From Gemmatimonadaceae bacterium (GTDB lineage: Bacteria; Gemmatimonadota; Gemmatimonadetes; Gemmatimonadales; Gemmatimonadaceae), in assembly GCA_035606695.1 (NCBI GenBank), contig DATNEW010000029.1, positions 1-64,000 of the forward strand: 64,000 nucleotides of DNA. The letters are read 5' to 3'. The stretch's first letter is position 1. Every line of letters begins with the position of its first letter. Position numbers and translations under genes: made by a program. Positions 1 to 9,938 of the stretch are shown in pieces. Under the pieces are notes generated by a model that searched no databases, was not told the DNA's origin, and saw only the letters and a list, made by a program, of their open reading frames with translations.

Positions 1-173
1 AGCGGCATCGGCGGTCGCCCCCGCTTCCCGGCGGTGGGATAGTACGGCGCGATCAACGCGCCAAGCGCGGCCCAGGGAATCACCGCATCCATCTCGGCCA
101 GGAATCGCTCGCGCCGCGTGACGCGCTTCTTCGTGCTCCACGCTTCGCCGGCGAACGTCCGCTGCTCTCCCAT
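1..173 (-). CDS. IS5-family transposase, N-terminal part (cut by window edge)
   Basis: Read on the minus strand from ATG at 173, an open frame runs off the left edge with 57 complete codons. It begins MGEQRTFAGEAWSTKKRVTR and continues through RREKF-like RRERFLAEMD, then VIPWAALGALIAPYYPTAGK and a GRPP motif. This is the characteristic N-terminus of IS5-group DDE transposases (basic KKxxTRRExFL stretch, then WxxLxxLIxPxYP). The DDE catalytic core lies outside the window, so intactness cannot be judged. An IS5-like terminus lies about 95 bp upstream of the start codon, as expected for a complete element end. The family call is confident; the subgroup is inferred. Confidence 0.85.
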   Translation of the reverse strand, partial: MGEQRTFAGEAWSTKKRVTRRERFLAEMDAVIPWAALGALIAPYYPTAGKRGRPPMP

Positions 174-268
174 GGGGCGCGCTCCGAAAAGAGAAAGGAC
201 TTCGACGCGGCAATACCGCATCGAAGCCCATTCCGCACAAGAGAAAACTCTATTAAATCAGACCTTCC
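1..268 (-). mobile_element. End of an IS5-family insertion sequence inserted in an attC site
   Basis: The inverted-repeat end reads, outward in, GGAAGGTCTGATTT (minus strand, 268 to 255). It matches the GGAAGGT start of IS5-group terminal repeats from memory of the family. It abuts CTAG at 269-272, the YTAR-type 4-bp target typical of IS5. That CTAG belongs to a sequence (ctagggcgttaggc) also found at the end of an intact attC at 1206-1219, so the element landed inside an attC and removed its left part from view. The other end is outside the window. Confidence 0.75.
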
Positions 269-282
269 CTAGGGCGTTAGGC
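269..282 (+). other. Truncated attC (right end only) cut by the IS5 element
   Basis: ctagggcgttaggc is identical to the last 14 bases of the attC at 1122-1219 and ends in the R'' core GTTAGGC (276-282). It marks the left boundary of the first cassette. The rest of this attC would lie beyond the IS element. Confidence 0.75.
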
Positions 283-309
283 AGCTATCACACTCCGTCG
301 GATCAGCAG

Positions 310-1137
310 ATGCCTTTCCTCGGTCATCTTTCGGATCTCCACGAAGTAGATCGCGGCAAACTAGCCGAACTACTCCGACCACTGGCACTTCGAAGTCGGT
401 CAGAGTATGTGAAGCTTGCTCAGCTGAGTGAGGCAGTGTCGCGCCATGACAACGCCAATGGTACCGATTGGACGGAGCGTCACGGCGCCGAGCTGCACGT
501 TTTGCTGACTGAGTACAAGTCGTTACGACAAGAGAGCCTGAACACGATCACGAATCGGGTCCAGGTAATGATCCTCGGGCTGGCGGCTATGGGCGCGCTT
601 GCCGGCGGAGCCATGACGAGTGAGGGCATCTCTCGAAGGCCCGCGCTGGTGACAGCAGTGTTCTCAGGTGCGATTCCTGTTTTTGCTTGCTTCATTTTCC
701 TCGCTTGGTTAAGCGAGGCCGTCAGATCGCATCGAGCGGGATACTTTCTCGCTTCGTGGCTCGAGCCGCGCATAAATGCGTTGGTGGGGAAGCTGACCCT
801 CAGTTTTGAGGCGTCGCTCTGGACGGGCCTCCTGCCGCGAGATGAACTCGGCGGCCCCTCGATGATGGCCTTAGCTATTCTAGGATTTGTCGCGGCGAGC
901 GCACCGCTGCTCGGGCTCGTGATATCGAATCGGCCATTCGGCTTTTGGGGCGGGTCGCCAATACCTCAGGTCTGGGGTCCTTGGATTGGCCTCGCCGTCG
1001 TCGCGGTGTACTCGTTGTCGCAAATGCATCGGCTGAAGAACAAGAGTCAGCTGGTCGCTGCGGTGTCCGGCGAAACGTCTTTGCCGGGAGACGCTGGCGA
1101 GACTGGTTCCAGCCGCAAGCTGCCTAACGAACGCTGA
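310..1137 (+). CDS. Cassette 1: unknown multipass membrane protein
   Basis: The 275-residue product was not recognised. ATG 310 is chosen because it lies 28 bp after the attC core; the frame is open upstream only through IS and attC sequence. The first ~80 residues are soluble, charged and likely helical. Four hydrophobic segments follow, at about 84-104, 111-136, 185-206 and 222-239. The region between segments 2 and 3 (140-180) is moderately polar. The stop codon lies inside the attC (1135-1137), so the last residues (LPNER) are encoded by attC sequence. There is no visible promoter or strong ribosome site in the 27-bp leader, as is usual for cassette genes. Confidence 0.7.
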   Translation: MPFLGHLSDLHEVDRGKLAELLRPLALRSRSEYVKLAQLSEAVSRHDNANGTDWTERHGAELHVLLTEYKSLRQESLNTITNRVQVMILGLAAMGALAGGAMTSEGISRRPALVTAVFSGAIPVFACFIFLAWLSEAVRSHRAGYFLASWLEPRINALVGKLTLSFEASLWTGLLPRDELGGPSMMALAILGFVAASAPLLGLVISNRPFGFWGGSPIPQVWGPWIGLAVVAVYSLSQMHRLKNKSQLVAAVSGETSLPGDAGETGSSRKLPNER

Positions 1138-1219
1138 AGCTGACAAGGGAGCTATTGATCATGCGCACTTCGTGCGCATTCTTATGTGATTCCCTTGCAG
1201 CTTAGCTAGGGCGTTAGGC
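1122..1219 (+). other. attC site 1
   Basis: R' GCCTAAC (1122-1128) and R'' GTTAGGC (1213-1219) are perfect complements. The inner boxes AAGCTGACAAGGGA and TCCCTTGCAGCTT pair except for one unpaired A, the extrahelical base that fixes strand polarity in attC folding. The centre carries a GC hairpin (ATGCGCAC/GTGCGCAT). Length is 98 bp. This is a textbook attC. Confidence 0.92.
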
Positions 1220-1250
1220 AGCATCCATCCCACGAGTGACGGTCAGGGCA

Positions 1251-2324
1251 ATGCTCGTCTATCTTGATTCCGGCGACATCGCCAACCTCGAACGATTGGC
1301 AGCGCGCGACCCGAACGCGTTCGCCGGCTTCATTGAAGCATGGGTCGCGCGCTCGTGCACGCTCGCGCTCTCACTTCATCACGCGCAGGAAATCAGCCAG
1401 CTGGCGGACGATGCCAGTCGGGAATGTCGGCTTGCATTGCTTTCCCGTTTCCCAGACATCCGATACGAGTGGGGTGGCTCGTATCAGGTCGCCCGTCTTG
1501 AAGCCCTCGCGCAGTTGATCGCACGTCTCGAGGGCACTCAAGCGGATTACGTTCGTGACGTTGGTTCCAGACTCTTTCAGCAACAAGGGCTTGAGCCACT
1601 TGCGGAGACCGTTAGCGAGGAGGGTCCGCGGCTTCGAGCACTGCAGGCGGAACAGGTTGCGACGTCGGCGATTCGCGGAGATACGCGCGGTGTGAAGCTC
1701 CCCCACTCGTATCGAAAGCAAGCGCTAAACAAAGTGGACTTGTCACACATTGCGTCCATCTCTTCCCGCGCACTCGCGATGGACGGCCTCACAGCATTCA
1801 CGCATGCGGCTGCGGCCCCGACCGTCGCAGCGATCAACGCTCACCTAGCAAGCGCTCCCAATGTGCGCGTCGCCTTCGAGCGAGCGTATGAATTGGAGGG
1901 CCTTGATGTCATTCGTTCGGTGGACGACGAGGATATTCATCGCGTCGCCACATTCTTCTCCGTAGCTCGAGAGGTGGCATCAGAGTGCGCTACGGAACTT
2001 GGCGCGGATGCCGCGATCGCGTTGCGCGCTCTCAATCCATACGAATGTCCGGGCGTGTGCGTGGAGATGGCGGTCAGCCGAGCGCAGGACCTCAGTGCCC
2101 AGGCGGCCGACGCAAGCGATGAGCCCGACCGCGCTCATATGAGCTACTTACCATACGTCGATGCAATGTTCGCGGATCGGCGAACTGTTGGCTTCCTGGA
2201 GCAATCCGCACGGTCGGGCAAGGCCGGGCCACTGCTCGCCACACAGTCACGACGTCTGGCGCGGAGTTCCGACCTGTCACGCTTCTTCGAAGTACTCGAC
2301 GCGATCACGCGCAATGCTGCCTAA
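1251..2324 (+). CDS. Cassette 2: unknown protein with possible PIN-like features
   Basis: The product is 357 residues from ATG 1251; a GTG at 1236 in frame would add five residues. The N-terminus MLVYLDSGDIANL resembles the first strand and acidic residue of PIN-like nucleases. Near the C-terminus, HMSYLPYVDAMFADRRTV resembles the PIN-like pattern in which a conserved D precedes a (D/N)xR turn. The middle is Ala-rich and helical. These similarities are by eye only and no full catalytic set is established, so a PIN-like RNase or toxin role is a hypothesis. The stop TAA (2322-2324) lies within attC site 2. There is no partner antitoxin gene in the same cassette. Confidence 0.65.
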   Translation: MLVYLDSGDIANLERLAARDPNAFAGFIEAWVARSCTLALSLHHAQEISQLADDASRECRLALLSRFPDIRYEWGGSYQVARLEALAQLIARLEGTQADYVRDVGSRLFQQQGLEPLAETVSEEGPRLRALQAEQVATSAIRGDTRGVKLPHSYRKQALNKVDLSHIASISSRALAMDGLTAFTHAAAAPTVAAINAHLASAPNVRVAFERAYELEGLDVIRSVDDEDIHRVATFFSVAREVASECATELGADAAIALRALNPYECPGVCVEMAVSRAQDLSAQAADASDEPDRAHMSYLPYVDAMFADRRTVGFLEQSARSGKAGPLLATQSRRLARSSDLSRFFEVLDAITRNAA

Positions 2325-2418
2325 CGAACATTGCGGCTGACAAAGGATCGCTATTGATTGTGCGCGCTCCGCGCGCACTCTTATTTGACTCGCTTGCAAC
2401 TGAACTCAGGCGTTAGGC
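2319..2418 (+). other. attC site 2
   Basis: R' GCCTAAC (2319-2325) and R'' GTTAGGC (2412-2418) are perfect complements 100 bp apart end to end. The centre contains the hairpin GTGCGCGC/GCGCGCAC. The left arm GCTGACAAAGGAT and right arm CGCTTGCAACTGA are related to, but more divergent than, those of site 1. Confidence 0.9.
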
Positions 2419-2434
2419 CGATGCACAAACTTTT

Positions 2435-2851
2435 ATGCCAAATTCCGTGACGGATTCATCCGGCGAACCTCTTCCGAATGTCGCGGTTGAACGCATCTCT
2501 CTCGTCGCGGCGTATTTTGGCCTGTGCACTGTCGGCGCGGCCTTCGCGACAGTGTTAGCGATCATCGCGATTGCGTTCCCAAAACTGGGATGGCATGAAC
2601 AGACCCAACCCCAATTGGGTAGGCCGGGCGTGGCCGTCACGCTGCTCGTTCTCCTCACGTTCGCACTCGGCAACACGTATCTCCAACTGCGCCGCCGCCG
2701 ACGCATCGGTGCGCTGTTGGCTGGCGCCTGTCTGGGTGCTGCCGTCGTCAACTCACTTTGGGCGCACGAGTACAGTTGGTGGATTTTAGCGCAGACGCTC
2801 GGTGTCGTCCTTCTCATTCGTGCGTGGCGATACCTTGAGCCGGGGGCTTGA
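2435..2851 (+). CDS. Cassette 3: unknown small membrane protein
   Basis: The 138-residue product was not recognised. There are hydrophobic segments at about 22-48, 65-83, 92-107 and 114-130, which suggests four membrane passes. A basic loop (RRRRR at about 86-90) would favour a cytoplasmic location between segments 2 and 3. The gene starts 17 bp after the attC 2 core and stops 13 bp before attC 3, a typical one-gene cassette. No promoter or clear Shine-Dalgarno site is visible. Confidence 0.7.
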   Translation: MPNSVTDSSGEPLPNVAVERISLVAAYFGLCTVGAAFATVLAIIAIAFPKLGWHEQTQPQLGRPGVAVTLLVLLTFALGNTYLQLRRRRRIGALLAGACLGAAVVNSLWAHEYSWWILAQTLGVVLLIRAWRYLEPGA

Positions 2852-2864
2852 ATCCGTCGCGCCG

Positions 2865-2963
2865 GCCTGACGAACGCTGAAGCTGCCGAGGAGGCTATTG
2901 ATGATGCGCGCTGCGCGCATTCTCATATGATTTCCTCGCAGCTTACCTGGGGCGGCGTACGGC
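2865..2963 (+). other. attC site 3 (slightly degenerate cores)
   Basis: R' GCCTGAC (2865-2871) and R'' GTACGGC (2957-2963) deviate from consensus. The inner boxes AAGCTGCCGAGGA and TCCTCGCAGCTT pair with one extra unpaired C, again the extrahelical base of attC folding. The centre hairpin is ATGCGCGC/GCGCGCAT. Length is 99 bp. Confidence 0.85.
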
Positions 2964-2979
2964 AACCACGCATCGCAAC

Positions 2980-3228
2980 ATGCCACTTTCCGAACTCGAG
3001 GTCGGCCCGCTGGTTTGGGTAGACGTGCGCGATGGAGTCGTCAGTCCGCTCGACCCGACGGTCCTCGCGCAATGCAAGTTCTGCGGATATTTCGTGCAAA
3101 CGCACCTGCCGGACGCCTGCGAGTGCGGCCGAATTCGCTGTACCGTGGTCGGCGATCGAGCGCAGGTGGTGAGTTCAGCGGATGAACCCGAGTATTGGCG
3201 ACCCCCGTCCGATGCGCATGGCGTATAA
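2980..3228 (+). CDS. Cassette 4: small Cys-rich protein, possibly zinc-binding
   Basis: The 82-residue product has cysteines at 32, 35, 47, 49 and 54 arranged as CKFC and CECGRIRC. CxxC followed by CxC suggests a small zinc ribbon or knuckle, but no named family was recognised. The gene begins 17 bp after the attC 3 core. Its stop TAA (3226-3228) lies inside the R' box of attC 4. Function is unknown. Confidence 0.65.
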   Translation: MPLSELEVGPLVWVDVRDGVVSPLDPTVLAQCKFCGYFVQTHLPDACECGRIRCTVVGDRAQVVSSADEPEYWRPPSDAHGV

Positions 3229-3340
3229 CGAACGCCAGCTGACGAGTGCTGCATCTCGGCAGGATGGCGCCCGCCGGTATCGCGATTTAGTCTTTTGATA
3301 TATCGCCTTGAAGACTCGCAGCTGAGCCAGACGGCAATCG
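3223..3340 (+). other. attC site 4, right core lost
   Basis: The inner boxes CAGCTGACGAGT (3236-3247) and ACTCGCAGCTG (3314-3324) pair with exactly one unpaired A, as in sites 1 and 3. The left core reads GTATAAC (3223-3229). At the spacing where R'' should lie (3334-3340) the sequence is gcaatcg, which is not a usable GTTRRRY core. The recognisable array ends here, which suggests a rearrangement boundary. Confidence 0.7.
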
Positions 3341-3395
3341 ATCCGTTTTGGCGCAATCCCAAGTCGAGCAAGAACTCCGGACAACCATCGCGATA

Positions 3396-4973
3396 TTACC
3401 GTATGCTCTTGATCGCGGCGCGAGCGGTCGACGGCTGAGCGAGTCCGGGAAGAAAACTGAAGTCAGCCGTCGCCTTGTCCCGTCCACCAACCGCCAGCGT
3501 CGCAAAGTTGTGGCAGCTGATGCACGAGCCAGGGCCCCGGTGTCCCGTATCACTCAACGTGAAATTCTGGATGTACGTCTCGAGTGTGACGTTCGACAGC
3601 ATTCCCGGCACAGCGTCCGTGGGCACGGGATTGGTCGTCTGCCGCGTAACGGCGGCACCCCACTGCGTGCCGATCAGGGCGTAATTCCTGAACGGCGTCT
3701 GGACGGAAGCCAACGCTTTTTGCCACTGCCTATTGATCTGCGCGGTGAGTGGATAAGGCGCCCAACAGCGCGATACCTGCGGTAGCGCGCTCGCCGGCGT
3801 CGTCGCGCCATTGGCATAGGGCTGCGCTGCACTCCACACGAACCGTTTGTCCGCCTTGTTCGACACCGGAATGATGTTCGTTCCCGCGACGTTCGCGCTC
3901 TTGTTGAAGTACGAATAACGAGTTGACGTACTCGGCGCCGCCGCCCCGCAGCTCGGCTGGTTCATCCAGTTCGCACGGGGCGAGCAGGCGCTCACCACGC
4001 TACACGGCGACTTGGCCAGCGGCGCGTTGTCCACGTGCTCGAACGTCGCCCAGATCCATTGCGGCTTCAGGTTCGCGTTGACGGCGTTGGGCGGGTTCCG
4101 CTGGATGATGTGCATGCCCACGAGGCCCAGTGTCACCGTCGCGCAGATCGGCTGGTTGGTGACGACGAGGTCTCCGGCCACGGCGAGGATCGCGCGCTCG
4201 GTGAAATAGCGCGTCGTGTCATCCCCGGCGTTCGCGTTCATGATGCGCCACGACGTCTTGACCTCGATCGAGCCATTGGCGCCGGTCGGCGTCGTCGCCG
4301 ACGCGGTGAATTGCGCGCCCGCTGGATTGTATTTCACGAACGTGTCCTGCCCCGCGATCGTCGTGAGCGTTTGCGAACGCTTGCCATCCGGCGCCTGGAG
4401 ATAATTCGCCTCGATGTCGTTCACTCGGCGCTCGTAGACCGTCCAGTTCCCATTGACGTCGATCAGCGGCAGGTCGGTGGACGCCTGGAAAAACTCTTCG
4501 TTGTTCGGCGCGGGCTTTCCCTTTCCGTTCGAGCCGATCGAGAAGACGGTGAGGTTTGACGGGTTGGCGCAGTTGGCGATCTTCGGCGAATTGCCGAACA
4601 GCGCGCTGATCCGCTTGAAGTTCTCCCACACCCGTGGCCCGGCCGCCGTGAGTCCCTTCGCCGGCGGCTGGGTCGTCGCGTTGGCGGCCCAGTTGAGCGC
4701 GACGAACATTTGCCACGCCATGTTGTCGAACGGGGTCTCCACGTCCGTCGCGGAACTCGTCGGCGCCTTGCCGAAGATTCCGCCGTAGTCGAGCGCCCTT
4801 TTGAGGGACGAATCCGTCCCGATGTAAGCGGGCACGATGGAGCACAATGTGTTCGACTCATTGGCGCAGAGGACCGCCACGGGAACGTACGGCGCCCGGA
4901 CCGTGGTCCGATCACGTACGGCCGCCGTCACACCAAGCAGAAGAATCGCGGATACGGCAAGGAGTCTTTTCAT
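3396..4973 (-). CDS. Exported protein with a C-terminal c-type heme motif
   Basis: The product is 525 residues. ATG 4973 is chosen over an upstream in-frame start because MKRLLAVSAILLLGVTAAV is a signal peptide. Near the C-terminus, CISCH (484-488) is a CxxCH heme c attachment motif in the context GPGSCISCHNF, so the protein should be periplasmic and carry one covalent heme. The long middle (about 60-480) has several scattered cysteines and was not recognised. It resembles hypothetical proteins whose only annotated region is a terminal cytochrome c motif. The gene lies opposite in direction to the cassette genes and lacks a flanking attC in its own orientation, so it is probably not a cassette. 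The electron-transfer partner is unknown. Confidence 0.7.
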   Translation of the reverse strand: MKRLLAVSAILLLGVTAAVRDRTTVRAPYVPVAVLCANESNTLCSIVPAYIGTDSSLKRALDYGGIFGKAPTSSATDVETPFDNMAWQMFVALNWAANATTQPPAKGLTAAGPRVWENFKRISALFGNSPKIANCANPSNLTVFSIGSNGKGKPAPNNEEFFQASTDLPLIDVNGNWTVYERRVNDIEANYLQAPDGKRSQTLTTIAGQDTFVKYNPAGAQFTASATTPTGANGSIEVKTSWRIMNANAGDDTTRYFTERAILAVAGDLVVTNQPICATVTLGLVGMHIIQRNPPNAVNANLKPQWIWATFEHVDNAPLAKSPCSVVSACSPRANWMNQPSCGAAAPSTSTRYSYFNKSANVAGTNIIPVSNKADKRFVWSAAQPYANGATTPASALPQVSRCWAPYPLTAQINRQWQKALASVQTPFRNYALIGTQWGAAVTRQTTNPVPTDAVPGMLSNVTLETYIQNFTLSDTGHRGPGSCISCHNFATLAVGGRDKATADFSFLPGLAQPSTARAAIKSIR

Positions 4974-5156
4974 GGTGCGCACCTTGTCAGGTCTTTGGGA
5001 GTGTCCGTCGCGAATCGCCCGGCGAAAGTACCGCCGGCAATTCTGCACGACAACCCTTCATTCGAGACGCTGAAGAACTTCCAGCTCGACATCCCGACGC
5101 AAGCACCGGCACCGAACGCAGAGAGCCAGACTGCGGCCTTGCGGAGCGTGACATCA

Positions 5157-5809
5157 TAGTAGCCGGCGACCTGTCAGAACGTCGCGCGTACCGCTTCACT
5201 GGCTTCGCCACGCGCGACGATACGTCGCTGCGTGAACGACTCGCGATGCGCGATGCAGAAACCGCGCTCGGGCTATCGCCGTCCGCACATCGCTTCGTCT
5301 ATGGTCCGCTCCGTGATGGGTGTGTGATCCGTGTGCTCAGCGTCGTCAATGATTTCGCGCGCGTGTCCGCTGCTCACCTCCGGTGGCTCACTGCCGGCGC
5401 CGCGCGTGATCCAGCTGCTCGACGAACGCGCGCGCATGACGCCGCTCCCCGCGCCATCGTCTGCGAAAATGGCGCGGAGTTCACGAGACAGGCGTTCGAC
5501 CAGTGGGCGCACAACCGCGGCATCACGCTCCACTTCATTCGCCCAGGCAAGCCGAGCGAGAACTGTTACGTCGAAAGCTTCAATGGCCGACTCAGCGATG
5601 AATGCCTCAACGAGAGCTCGTTCGTGAACCTGGCCGATGCGCAACGCACCATCGAAGCGTGGCGCATCGAGTACAACGAAGCTCGGCCGCACAGCGGCCT
5701 CGCCCTTCGAACCCCGGCGGAGTTTGCGGAGACTACCTGTTGCTCACACCTTCTACCCAGTCCGATCGACAGGAATAGCTGGATCAAGAATAGGGGTCAC
5801 GTCAATTAG
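5157..5809 (+). pseudogene. Decayed IS3-family transposase (OrfB)
   Basis: Pieces of an IS3-type OrfB integrase are collinear but damaged. LSERRAYRFTGF near 5177 matches the N-terminal region. The usual GYRR stretch appears only in another frame near 5268. IRVLSVVNDF near 5325 is the first core strand. SLPAPRVIQLLDERARM near 5390 lies in a shifted frame. IVCENGAEF, HFIRPGKPSENCYVESFNGR, DECLNE and EYNEARPHSGL (about 5455-5700) are the C-terminal half of the DDE core. The second catalytic Asp is Glu here (CENG instead of SDNG), and the first acidic region is deleted. At least two frameshifts and an internal deletion make it non-functional. It ends next to an attC half-site. Confidence 0.85.
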
Positions 5810-5811
5810 AC

Positions 5812-5841
5812 TTCCTTGCAGCTCTAGCTTCGGTGTTAGCT
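5812..5841 (+). other. attC right half next to the IS3 remnant
   Basis: ttccttgcagctc followed by ten bases and GTTAGCT reproduces the L''-R'' half of attC sites 1 and 3 (TTCCTTGCAGCTT, nine bases, GTTAGGC). The left half is missing and replaced by the IS3 remnant, so an IS appears to have interrupted a second attC. Confidence 0.6.
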
Positions 5842-5992
5842 GCGTTAGCTTGCAATAAATCTCGCTTCCTGCCTTGCAAAAATACGATCCTGATTTTCGG
5901 TGGCTCCGGTCGCCTATCGCTGCGATCAGAATGCATGCAAACTCTTCGGAGAGGCAGATACAGGAACGCAACCAAATTCTGGTCGAGGTGCA

Positions 5993-6598
5993 ATGGGTAC
6001 GGCAACGGACGACGGCTCGAACGGATATGAAGCGGTCGCGAACATGTACATTGCCGGACGCGGTACCCGGTCTCCCGCCGGCGACTCGATCGGTGCCGCG
6101 GTCGTCAAGGCCTGGGCAGACGCCTTTCCCCGCGGCGCGACGGTGCTCGACCTCGGCTCGGGTCCCGGTGAACCGAGCACCCGGATCCTGCAAGAGGCGG
6201 GTCTCACGACGTACGCGGTCGAGGCGTCACCGACGATGGTCGCAGCGTTCCGCGAGCGGTTCCCGGATGTGCCGATTGAGCGAAATACCGTCGAGGCATC
6301 AGAGTTCTTTAACCGAACCTTTAGCGGCGTGCTTGCCTGGGGCCTGTTGTTCTTACTCGACCCCGCCGCGCAAGCGCTCGTCATCAAAAAGGTCGCGCGC
6401 GCCCTCGAGCCACAAGGACGCTTTCTCTTCACGGCACACCGCGAGCCTTTGGAATGGTTGGACGCCATGACCGGACGCCGGTCGCAATCTCTCGGCGAGC
6501 ACACGTATGAGCGATTGCTGCGTGACGCTGGCCTGACGTGGGTCGCCGACGCCAAGGATGAGGGCGAGAACCATTATTACTTTGTCGAGAAGGCGTAG
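5993..6598 (+). CDS. Class I SAM-dependent methyltransferase
   Basis: The product is 201 residues from ATG 5993, preceded by a GAGGTG ribosome-binding site; the longer upstream frame reads through attC-like DNA. The glycine-rich SAM-binding motif I is VLDLGSGPGEPS (51-62). An acidic residue ends the next strand (AVEAS), and a post-II region reads FSGVLAWGLLFLL. The fold is the Rossmann-type methyltransferase; the substrate is not predictable. The gene lies between two attC half-sites and may be an old cassette gene. Confidence 0.85.
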   Translation: MGTATDDGSNGYEAVANMYIAGRGTRSPAGDSIGAAVVKAWADAFPRGATVLDLGSGPGEPSTRILQEAGLTTYAVEASPTMVAAFRERFPDVPIERNTVEASEFFNRTFSGVLAWGLLFLLDPAAQALVIKKVARALEPQGRFLFTAHREPLEWLDAMTGRRSQSLGEHTYERLLRDAGLTWVADAKDEGENHYYFVEKA

Positions 6599-6631
6599 TC
6601 CGGATCGTCACTCTGGGGGTCCTTTCGCGAG

Positions 6632-7132
6632 ATGAGTGACACACCTCTCTTACGCCACTATTGGTTCCCAGCGAGTCACGGCCTCGGCATCGGCGTCACG
6701 GCGCCCGACGCGGGCACGGCGTGGTTCGCCGCCAAAGCCGCGTTGCATCGGCTGCCGCCCGGGACGACGCTGACGGGCCAATACGTCGAAGACGTTGATC
6801 CACAATCGCTCGACGTCGGTGACATCGCCGCGCCGATCACTGTGCCCGGCGTCTGGTTTCCGGCCGGCGAAGCGCGGCCCGTCCAGATACGCGTCGCACC
6901 AACGCCCGACGAAGCGCGGTCCGGCTTTGTTTTCGTCGCCGACGATGGGTCGGCACGCGAACTCACCGCCGCCGAGGCGGACTTTCTCGCGACTGCATTT
7001 GACGCGGGTGACGGTGCGCGCCCGTACGTAAAGCGCCACTATGATTCTCGAACGCCCGATGGCCGGCTCCTCGGATTTCTGCCTCGAGCCGAACTGCCCG
7101 AAGGACTCAGCGTTCGGACGCGCGATTCATAG
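6632..7132 (+). CDS. Unknown protein, 166 residues
   Basis: No family was recognised. The N-terminal half (about 1-75) is a compact mixed sequence starting HYWFPASHGLGIGVTAPDAG. The C-terminal half contains FVFVADDGSARELTAAEADF and ends with LLGFLPRAELPEGLSV. There is no signal peptide, membrane segment or cysteine. It starts 33 bp after the methyltransferase stop, so the two could be cotranscribed. It sits in the accessory region with attC remnants on both sides. Confidence 0.6.
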   Translation: MSDTPLLRHYWFPASHGLGIGVTAPDAGTAWFAAKAALHRLPPGTTLTGQYVEDVDPQSLDVGDIAAPITVPGVWFPAGEARPVQIRVAPTPDEARSGFVFVADDGSARELTAAEADFLATAFDAGDGARPYVKRHYDSRTPDGRLLGFLPRAELPEGLSVRTRDS

Positions 7133-7236
7133 CGAGCGATGCCGAGCCATCGTGTCCCCACGCTCGGATTAGACTTCCTTGCTCAACTACAACCCTAGAT
7201 GACACCCACGCATCCCTTGCTGGTCAACGATCTCTC

Positions 7237-8034
7237 ATGACCGAGTCACGTACCCTCGATGAGCTTCTCGCTCATTTGGAAACGATGCTTCACACGAGCA
7301 CCTATGACGACCCGACCGGCAACGGTCTCCTCGTCCGCGGTCGCTCGTCCGTCCGGTGCATCGGCGCCGCGCTCAATACGTCGTTCGCGACCATCGACGC
7401 CGCGATTGAACGCGGTGTTGATTGCCTCTTCGTACATCACGCGCCCTGGGCGTCCATCGATCTCGACCTCCATGCTCCCAAGCTCGAGCGCCTGAGGAGG
7501 GAAGGCATCTCGCTCTATGCAGCGCACGAGGCGCTCGATCGTGTCCCCACTGACAGTGTCAGCGCCGTTCTCTCTCGGCTCATCGGTCTCACCGTCGAAC
7601 GCGAGGGCGGCGATGATCTCGTGGTCGCTCTCGCGCCGCCCATGACGTTCGACGCATGGACGGCGCTCGTCGCCGAGCGTTTGGCAACACCAGTGCGTGC
7701 GTGGCCCAACGCGTCCGACTTCCGGCGCGTTGCCGTCGTCCCCGGCGGTGGCGGCAGCACAGAATACCTCGCCAAAGCCGTCGCTCTGGGTTGTGACACC
7801 TTTTTCACCGGCGAAGGCTCGCTCTACACCGAACTCTTTGCCCGCGAGCAGGGGCTGTCCCTCGTTCTCGCGTCGCACGATGCGACGGAGTTTCCGGGCG
7901 TGTGCCACTTTGTGGAATCGGTCGCGGCTGCGCTCGGGCTCGATTGGCATCGGATCCAAGAAGCCGCGTTCATCACCGGTGGCGGCCGCGCACCGATCGA
8001 ACATGGTCGCGGCACGTCGTTTAACGAACGCTGA
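7237..8034 (+). CDS. NIF3-like dinuclear metal-centre protein
   Basis: The 265-residue product has the motif order of the NIF3 / GTP cyclohydrolase I type 2-like family. It shows a strand with ALNTSFATIDAAIERGVD, the metal-binding pair H67-H68 in LFVHHAPW, SLYAAHEALD (equivalent to YSAHTNLD), TGEGSLYTELF and a C-terminal SHDATEFPG (equivalent to GHYATE). Family members bind two metal ions; the biological reaction is uncertain for most. The stop codon and final NER residues come from an attC left half, exactly as in cassette 1, which suggests cassette origin. Confidence 0.85.
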   Translation: MTESRTLDELLAHLETMLHTSTYDDPTGNGLLVRGRSSVRCIGAALNTSFATIDAAIERGVDCLFVHHAPWASIDLDLHAPKLERLRREGISLYAAHEALDRVPTDSVSAVLSRLIGLTVEREGGDDLVVALAPPMTFDAWTALVAERLATPVRAWPNASDFRRVAVVPGGGGSTEYLAKAVALGCDTFFTGEGSLYTELFAREQGLSLVLASHDATEFPGVCHFVESVAAALGLDWHRIQEAAFITGGGRAPIEHGRGTSFNER

Positions 8035-8824: not shown

Positions 8825-8988
8825 TCGACTGGCCGCGCAGTACGACGCGTCGCTCCATAGAGTAGAGCCGTCGCTCCAGACTGCACACGACGCAGCGTGG
8901 CGCGCACCGAGATAACCGCAACGCACAAAACGTCTTCGCATTGACTTCGCTGCGGGCACGGCCGTTGCCCTCCCGCGGCCCATCATCG

Positions 8989-9020
8989 TGAGCAAAGCAT
9001 CATAAGTAAACAATTGCTCA
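8989..9020. promoter_or_regulatory. Inverted repeat upstream of the precursor genes
   Basis: TGAGCAA (8989-8995) and TTGCTCA (9014-9020) are perfect 7-bp arms around an 18-base AT-rich spacer, 81 bp upstream of the first leader-peptide gene. The AT-rich centre could carry a -10 element. The rest of the 8825-9100 gap shows no gene. An operator role is inferred from position only. Confidence 0.35.
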
Positions 9021-9100: not shown

Positions 9101-9514
9101 ATGCGGGCAACGATGCGGGAGCAGATGCAGCGGTACTCGTCCGACCCCGCGTTCGCGACCACGGCGAACGCGTATTACTCGGCGGTGCTCAGCCGATCGG
9201 CGGTGGACGGCGCGTTCCGGCAGAAGCTGTTGACCGAGCCGCGTGCGGCGCTTGCGGAGTTCAACGGCTGCGATGTCTCCAAGATGCCTGAGTCTCTGAA
9301 CATCGTGTTCATCGAGAACAACGTGGATGCAACGATCGTGTTGCCCGATCTCGTCTCGGAGAGTTCAACGCTCTCGGAGGCGCAGTTGGAGACCGTCTCT
9401 GGCGGCACTGACACCAGTGTGGGAGTCACCACCGCCGCCGTTGCCGCAGTCATGCTGTATGACGCCGCGGCGGATTGGATCAGGGCACACACCACCGACC
9501 CGTACGGCTTCTAG
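9101..9514 (+). CDS. NHLP-type leader peptide RiPP precursor 1
   Basis: The product is 137 residues from ATG 9101, chosen because CAGGAGAAA lies 8 bases upstream. Residues ~39-102 match the nitrile-hydratase-like leader family (NHLP): FRQKLLTEPRAALAEF, then LNIVFIEN, DATIVLPDL, and LSEAQLETVSGG ending in the Gly101-Gly102 processing site. The predicted core is 35 residues (103-137), starting TDTSVGVTTAAVAAVMLYDA and ending TTDPYGF, with no Cys. In this family the leader recruits modifying enzymes and a C39-type peptidase transporter cuts after GG. None of those partners is visible nearby. Function as a precursor is inferred from the leader. Confidence 0.82.
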   Translation: MRATMREQMQRYSSDPAFATTANAYYSAVLSRSAVDGAFRQKLLTEPRAALAEFNGCDVSKMPESLNIVFIENNVDATIVLPDLVSESSTLSEAQLETVSGGTDTSVGVTTAAVAAVMLYDAAADWIRAHTTDPYGF

Positions 9515-9551
9515 GCGCAATTCAGCTCCACTCATTTCAGGGGACGAACAC

Positions 9552-9938
9552 ATGCAACTCGACCAGCCGGGCGCGGTCCGCGATGCGCAGACCGACAAAG
9601 TGGCACGGAGTCACGAGCTCGTACACGCCGTCCTCGTGCGCTCCACGACCGATGCGGCGTTTCGCGCAGAGCTCCTGGCCAATCCGCGCGCCGCCATCGC
9701 GAGTCACGCCGGCAAGCCGGCCTCGGCGCTATCAGAATCCTTTAACGTGAGATTCATCGAGAACAGCTCCGACGCGACGATCGTGCTTCCCGATTTTCAG
9801 GGCGGCGATGCCGCGCTGTCGGACCAACAGCTCGAGACCGTGGCTGGCGGCGTAGGCGACCTGCAGGATGCCATCGCGCAAGCGGTCGCTCCGGTCCTCG
9901 CTCCGGTCGCGGCGTGGGTGGTCGGTCTGTTCGACTGA
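9552..9938 (+). CDS. NHLP-type leader peptide RiPP precursor 2
   Basis: The product is 128 residues from ATG 9552 and is paralogous to the preceding gene in its leader: FRAELLANPRAAIASH, FNVRFIENSSDATIVLPD and LSDQQLETVAGG with Gly99-Gly100. The 28-residue core (101-128) differs completely: VGDLQDAIAQAVAPVLAPVA then AWVVGLFD. It is hydrophobic, likely helical, and lacks Cys, Ser and Thr, so lanthionine or thiazole chemistry on it is not possible. It resembles a membrane-active or circular-type bacteriocin core, but that is inference. It starts 37 bp after precursor 1 and is probably cotranscribed. Confidence 0.82.
   Translation: MQLDQPGAVRDAQTDKVARSHELVHAVLVRSTTDAAFRAELLANPRAAIASHAGKPASALSESFNVRFIENSSDATIVLPDFQGGDAALSDQQLETVAGGVGDLQDAIAQAVAPVLAPVAAWVVGLFD

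What the first reader, a model, noticed from the sequence alone, without database searches (positions are those of the whole stretch)
9101..9938. Tandem NHLP-leader precursor genes with unrelated, Cys-free cores and no visible maturation genes
Two adjacent genes share a leader block (FRxxLLxxPRAA, FIENxxDATIVLPD, LSxxQLETVxGG) but have different 35- and 28-residue cores after Gly-Gly. This is the layout of leader-conserved, core-diversified RiPP precursors. Neither core has Cys, and core 2 also lacks Ser and Thr, so common lanthipeptide or azole chemistry is excluded for core 2. Core 2 is a hydrophobic helix typical of membrane-active or circular peptides. No radical-SAM, cyclase, lanthionine synthetase or C39 peptidase transporter is in the 64-kb window, so maturation would be in trans or use a novel partner. 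A possible operator (8989-9020) lies upstream. Flanking YdeI-like genes on both sides could be linked to tolerance.
Basis: partly seen in the sequence, partly recalled or inferred. Interest (0 to 1): 0.8.

Follow-up and report, generated by a model that had tools for sequence, protein, structure and literature searches.

The report
Satellite proteusin peptide genes, co-regulated remotely
Two neighbouring genes encode exported-peptide precursors of the NHLP ("proteusin") type, and although no processing genes lie next to them, they carry the same two-part sigma-54-type promoter as a complete peptide-modifying and exporting gene cluster elsewhere in the same genome, so they are most likely a distant outpost of that cluster.

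Summary
Two adjacent genes (9101-9514, 137 aa; 9552-9938, 128 aa) have NHLP leaders (TIGR03793, E about 3e-11, but below the curated cut-off), a GG site, and Cys-free cores of 35 and 28 residues; core 2 has no Ser or Thr. No C39 peptidase, LanM/LanC or YcaO lies in the window.

They are not orphans. Another contig (C30) of the same genome holds six more NHLP precursors, four short GG peptides, two LanM synthetases and a complete NHLP export system with the genome's only detected C39 peptidase. The pair carries, at 8854-8969, the same bipartite promoter-like element as C30: a TCYA-N5-TAGA dyad 100 bp upstream of a sigma54-type GGYAC-N5-TTGC. The 5.9-Mb genome has exactly three such sites, each upstream of an NHLP operon; a near match precedes the export operon. 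A sigma54 activator gene sits in C30 and RpoN is present.

Best reading: a satellite precursor operon of a sigma54-controlled regulon, cleaved and exported in trans. The LanM beside the Cys-free C30 precursors has lost a zinc ligand, suggesting dehydration at most; core 2 cannot be a LanM substrate. This is a new variant of a known kind. The proposed operator and YdeI tolerance link are not supported.

The parts
8854..8866 (+). Dyad TCCATAGAGTAGA (consensus TCYA-N5-TAGA), putative activator-binding (enhancer) site
   Evidence: Exactly 100 bp upstream of the sigma54-like promoter, as at C30 10159, C30 17039, G033 (two) and G070 (one)
8954..8969 (+). Sigma54-type promoter GGGCACGGCCGTTGCC (-24/-12 like)
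   Evidence: Same element upstream of both C30 NHLP operons and of the first G033 precursor; with the dyad, only 3 sites in the 5.9-Mb genome
8989..9020 (.).
   Evidence: Present but not in the homologous C30 region; the 7-bp arms are not the pairing in the minimum-energy RNA fold; function unknown
9101..9514 (+). Gene 1: NHLP (proteusin-type) precursor, 137 aa
   Evidence: TIGR03793 E 3.4e-11, 42.8 bits, cut-off 50.9; 57% identical over residues 1-130 to the precursor at C30:10331
9407..9511 (+). Core 1, TDTSVGVTTAAVAAVMLYDAAADWIRAHTTDPYGF
   Evidence: Follows the GG at residues 101-102; related to the C30:10331 core
9552..9938 (+). Gene 2: NHLP (proteusin-type) precursor, 128 aa, probably co-transcribed (37-bp gap)
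   Evidence: TIGR03793 E 2.8e-11, 43.1 bits, cut-off 50.9; 48% identical to P0001 over P0001 residues 25-126
9852..9935 (+). Core 2, VGDLQDAIAQAVAPVLAPVAAWVVGLFD; no Cys, Ser or Thr
   Evidence: Follows the GG at residues 99-100; no core relative found among the paralogues

Best explanation
The pair is a satellite precursor operon of a sigma54-controlled NHLP (proteusin-type) peptide regulon. Proposed mechanism: the sigma54 activator encoded in the C30 cluster binds the TCYA-N5-TAGA dyad and, with RpoN, switches on the window pair, the two C30 precursor operons and probably the export operon together. The NHLP leaders are recognised by the NHLM exporter, its C39 peptidase domain cuts after Gly-Gly, and the roughly 30-residue hydrophobic, mildly acidic cores are released. 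A LanM from C30 may dehydrate Thr/Ser of core 1 before export; lanthionine rings cannot form because there is no Cys, and core 2 cannot be a LanM substrate. Shown by sequence: the precursors, the leader match, the shared promoter architecture, and the machinery elsewhere in the genome. Inferred: binding by this activator, trans processing and export, dehydration, and secretion as a membrane-active or signalling peptide pair.
For: NHLP leader matches. C30 cluster with NHLP paralogues, two LanM (TIGR03897, 631 and 619 bits), NHLM HlyD (TIGR03794), C39-ABC (TIGR03796, 1094 bits) and ABC2 (TIGR03797, 923 bits), all above cut-off. The genome's only detected C39 peptidase is that exporter. Same promoter architecture with 100-bp spacing; the whole-genome pattern search gives 3 hits, all directly upstream of NHLP operons, reversed control 0; in 179 genomes 8 of 9 hits lie in NHLP clusters, and the reversed control gives 6 hits, none in those genomes; 0 hits in 29.5 Mb simulated. 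Near match (dyad C30:21888 plus GGTAT-N6-TTGC-like promoter, 98-bp spacing) upstream of the TolC/HlyD/C39-ABC operon. Sigma54_activat domain in the C30 activator, E 5.7e-62; RpoN present. Precedent: phylogenetic profiling ties NHLP to this exporter more than to any modifying enzyme (PMC2887384); [quoted passage not shown]
Against: No expression or product data. Scores are under the curated TIGR03793 cut-off. Core 2 has no residue any LanM can modify, so the role of modification is uncertain. The activator has no DNA-binding domain recognised by Pfam, so its binding to the dyad is inferred. The promoter pattern was derived from four of the sites it then found (window, C30 x2, G033); the exactness of the spacing and the extra G033 and G070 sites are the independent part. 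The order of contigs C29 and C30 is unknown, so the true distance is unknown.
Confidence: 0.78

Rival explanations
1. The pair encodes unmodified two-component secreted peptides: the NHLP leader serves only as an export and cleavage signal, and the two helical cores act together like a two-peptide bacteriocin.
For: Core 2 has no Cys, Ser or Thr; two different hydrophobic cores in tandem; strongest known correlate of NHLP is the exporter, not an enzyme (PMC2887384); low-confidence model shows a helix 107-130 in core 1.
Against: Core 1 has seven Ser/Thr and its nearest paralogue lies in a LanM cluster; the precursors that share its promoter sit in LanM operons; all cores are net negative; no GxxxG motif in either core.
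Confidence: 0.35
2. The pair is a decaying, functionally silent duplicate of C30 precursors left behind after transposition.
For: Leader DNA of gene 1 is 75% identical to C30:10369-10579; IS3-type integrase ORF at 4847-5809; no counterpart near the homologous YdeI gene in two congeneric genomes; core 2 has no modifiable residues.
Against: Both ORFs intact with coding-like GC3 (0.84 and 0.78), conserved GG and leader motifs, and a promoter kept at exactly the right spacing.
Confidence: 0.12
3. The pair is modified by an unrecognised enzyme encoded nearby.
For: A methyltransferase (5900-6598) and uncharacterised ORFs lie within 4 kb.
Against: Neighbours are ordinary types (NIF3, YdeI/OmdA, S9 peptidase, TetR); the flanking YdeI homologues in relatives stand in other neighbourhoods; a complete machinery with the same promoter exists elsewhere in the genome.
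Confidence: 0.05

Closest known systems
NHLP / proteusin precursor family (TIGR03793; Haft, Basu and Mitchell 2010, PMC2887384)
   Same: About 100-residue nitrile-hydratase-like leader, GG site, short variable core, NHLM export genes in the genome, paralogues beside LanM; Cys-free members near LanM were already noted and predicted to stay dehydrated.
   Different: Scores lie below the curated cut-off; the pair is unlinked to any enzyme or exporter; sigma54-type promoter with a fixed-distance dyad shared with a remote cluster; core 2 has no modifiable Ser, Thr or Cys.
Prochlorosins / synechococsins (ProcM-type class II lanthipeptides)
   Same: Many precursors with conserved leaders and diverse cores, some far from the LanM gene (PMC10783134).
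   Different: Those are Nif11-type leaders with a single promiscuous LanM; here cores lack Cys, so lanthionines cannot form, and the leader is NHLP.
Carnazolamide-type dehydrazoles (LanMbC, PMC10676384)
   Same: NHLP precursor, LanM-type dehydratase fused to a cyclase domain without the zinc site, dehydration without rings.
   Different: That system also uses a YcaO and a Cys-rich core; on C30 no YcaO was found and the NHLP cores are nearly all Cys-free (one Cys in one of them).

Membership tests
NHLP / proteusin precursors (TIGR03793) | Leader profile match above curated cut-off (50.9 bits) | tested here: not met
   42.8 and 43.1 bits, E about 3e-11, near full-length match; three C30 paralogues exceed the cut-off. 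Hence 'NHLP-type', sub-threshold
NHLP / proteusin precursors (TIGR03793) | Gly-Gly cleavage site followed by short variable core | tested here: met
   GG invariant in the alignments of 9 and 8 paralogues; cores 35 and 28 residues
NHLP / proteusin precursors (TIGR03793) | NHLM export system (TIGR03794/03796/03797) in the genome | tested here: met
   All three above cut-off on C30
NHLP / proteusin precursors (TIGR03793) | Post-translationally modified core | not testable with these tools
   Needs mass spectrometry
Class II lanthipeptide | Core with Cys and Ser/Thr for lanthionine rings | tested here: not met
   No Cys in either core; no Ser/Thr in core 2
Class II lanthipeptide | LanM synthetase linked to the precursor | tested here: not met
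   None in the window; two LanM on contig C30
Two-peptide (class IIb) bacteriocin | GxxxG helix-interaction motif and known family match | tested here: not met
   No GxxxG in either core by inspection; no NCBIfam class IIb match above cut-off (best TIGR03949, 12.5 bits against 21.5)
Sigma54-dependent regulon | -24/-12 type promoter, upstream activator site, activator gene and RpoN | tested here: met
   Sequence features only; binding and dependence not tested

The most novel reading that the evidence does not exclude
A sigma54-controlled regulon couples scattered Cys-free NHLP precursors to LanM enzymes whose cyclase half has lost its zinc site. In three related clusters (G033, G070, G008) the zinc-ligand Cys motifs are gone and a zinc-type dehydrogenase gene (LanJA-like) sits beside LanM, suggesting ring-free peptides in which Ser/Thr become dehydro- or D-amino acids. 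In the window's own genome the LanM next to Cys-free precursors has lost one ligand (WSHG for WCHG) and no close dehydrogenase homologue was found.
Probability: 0.35. Interest if true: 0.7.

Novelty: new variant of a known kind. Interest (0 to 1): 0.55.

Why it matters
Precursor genes of this type are usually found by looking next to an enzyme or exporter, so unlinked ones are missed or called orphans. Here a promoter signature alone ties an unlinked precursor pair to its machinery and recovers precursor operons in other genomes, giving a simple genome-mining handle. It also makes testable whether a LanM with a damaged zinc site serves only as a dehydratase for Cys-free peptides, and what ring-free, acidic, hydrophobic NHLP peptides are for.

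Tried and rejected
The 8989-9020 repeat as shared operator: rejected, absent from C30. YdeI/OmdA as linked tolerance genes: not supported. Contig-end overlap between C29 and C30: none found, adjacency undecided. A LanJ orthologue in the own genome: best hit only 29% identity on C28. Radical-SAM/SPASM route: no SPASM domain in the genome. YcaO route: one YcaO on C28, unlinked, not examined further. Structure prediction of P0001: low confidence (mean pLDDT 57), so no fold search was made. PADLOC search of ORFs at the two contig starts: nothing.

Full report
Observation. Both match the NHLP leader profile TIGR03793 over nearly its whole length, up to the Gly-Gly (E 3.4e-11 and 2.8e-11), though below the curated cut-off. 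The cores have 35 and 28 residues. Neither has Cys; core 2 has no Ser or Thr and is strongly hydrophobic.

Not orphans. In the whole genome (5.9 Mb, 50 contigs, 99% complete) the NHLP profile finds eight clear matches: these two on contig C29 (the window) and six on contig C30, a 40.5-kb contig. C30 also encodes four short GG-leader peptides, three of them with Cys in the core; two LanM synthetases; a small hydrophobic protein; TolC; and the full NHLM export set, HlyD-type adaptor, C39-peptidase ABC transporter and second ABC subunit, each of the three above its curated cut-off. The genome's only detected C39 peptidase is that exporter. Gene 1 is 57% identical to the first C30 precursor over residues 1-130, and its core is related to that precursor's core (z 7.9), whereas core 2 resembles none of the others.

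Shared control element. Upstream of gene 1 lies GGGCACGGCCGTTGCC (8954-8969), a sigma54-type promoter, and exactly 100 bp upstream of it a dyad TCCATAGAGTAGA (8854-8866). The same pair of elements with the same 100-bp spacing precedes both C30 precursor operons and two precursors in a related genome (G033); genome G070 has one at 100 bp and two at 96 and 112 bp. A pattern allowing 76-104 bases between the two parts matches exactly three places in the window's genome, all directly upstream of NHLP precursors, with no match of the reversed control. Over 179 genomes of the family, nine matches occur, eight in NHLP clusters (G000 three, G033 two, G070 three; one of the G070 sites is not directly upstream of a recognised precursor); the control pattern matches six times, never in those genomes. 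Simulated sequence of 29.5 Mb gives none. A near match (dyad at C30:21888, CGGTATGGCGGTTGCC, spacing 98) precedes the export operon. The C30 cluster encodes a protein with a sigma54 interaction domain (E 5.7e-62), counterparts by sequence occur in the G033 and G008 clusters, and the genome has RpoN. The pattern was derived from four of the matches; the extra G033 and G070 matches and the constancy of the spacing are independent support.

Chemistry. LanM1 keeps the zinc-ligand motifs WCHG and CCG and lies beside the Cys-containing short peptides. LanM2, beside the Cys-free NHLP precursors (one of them has a single Cys), reads WSHG and CCG. The LanM of G033, whose three neighbouring NHLP cores are Cys-free, has WSHG and no second Cys motif; those of G070 and G008, with Cys-free NHLP cores in the same clusters, have neither motif. 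The last three have a zinc-type alcohol-dehydrogenase-like gene next to LanM, as in LanJA enzymes, which lead to D-amino acids from dehydro residues (PMC7268733). [quoted passage not shown] 2007, title seen in the reference list of PMC9934072). Dehydration without rings is thus plausible for core 1; core 2 offers LanM nothing. These are few clusters from one family and no tree was made, so the association is a lead, not a law.

Function. The most likely course is: co-induction with C30, leader recognition by the exporter, cleavage after Gly-Gly, release of two hydrophobic, mildly acidic peptides. Whether they act as membrane-active agents against competitors, as signals, or otherwise cannot be told here.

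Novelty. NHLP precursors, Cys-free members near LanM, scattered class II precursors and ring-free LanM products are each known (PMC2887384, PMC10783134, PMC10676384). In one search of the held library I found no report of sigma54 control of proteusin-type peptides; this is weak evidence, since the library is partial. The combination is a new variant of a known kind.

Noticed in passing
G033:C8:202812-207167, G070:C6:26512-30904, G008:C21:202122-206500: LanM genes with degenerate or missing zinc ligands, each next to a zinc-type dehydrogenase gene (LanJA-like), in clusters whose NHLP cores lack Cys.
   Followed up: partly
G000:C30:21888-22001: Dyad plus near-consensus sigma54-type promoter upstream of the TolC/HlyD/C39-ABC export operon, spacing 98 bp.
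   Followed up: partly
window 4847-5809: ORF with IS3-type integrase core domain (rve_3, E 1.3e-26), about 3.3 kb upstream of the pair; a possible trace of mobility.
   Followed up: no
window 1-8000 and G000:C30:1-6600: Both contig starts have lower GC and lower third-position GC than the rest, with several ORFs of no Pfam or PADLOC match; possibly foreign DNA near the contig breaks.
   Followed up: partly
G000:C30:31752-33023; G033:C8:209347-210486: DUF7005 protein (PF22541, E below 1e-120) with an HExxH-like motif, kept beside the NHLM exporter and a substrate-binding protein in both clusters.
   Followed up: no
G000:C1:171651-172856 and G000:C28:62003-62962: A separate LanC-like domain protein and a YcaO protein elsewhere in the genome, not linked to NHLP precursors.
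   Followed up: no
G025:C64:76372-76499: Single promoter-pattern match in a genome without an NHLP match; may be chance.
   Followed up: no
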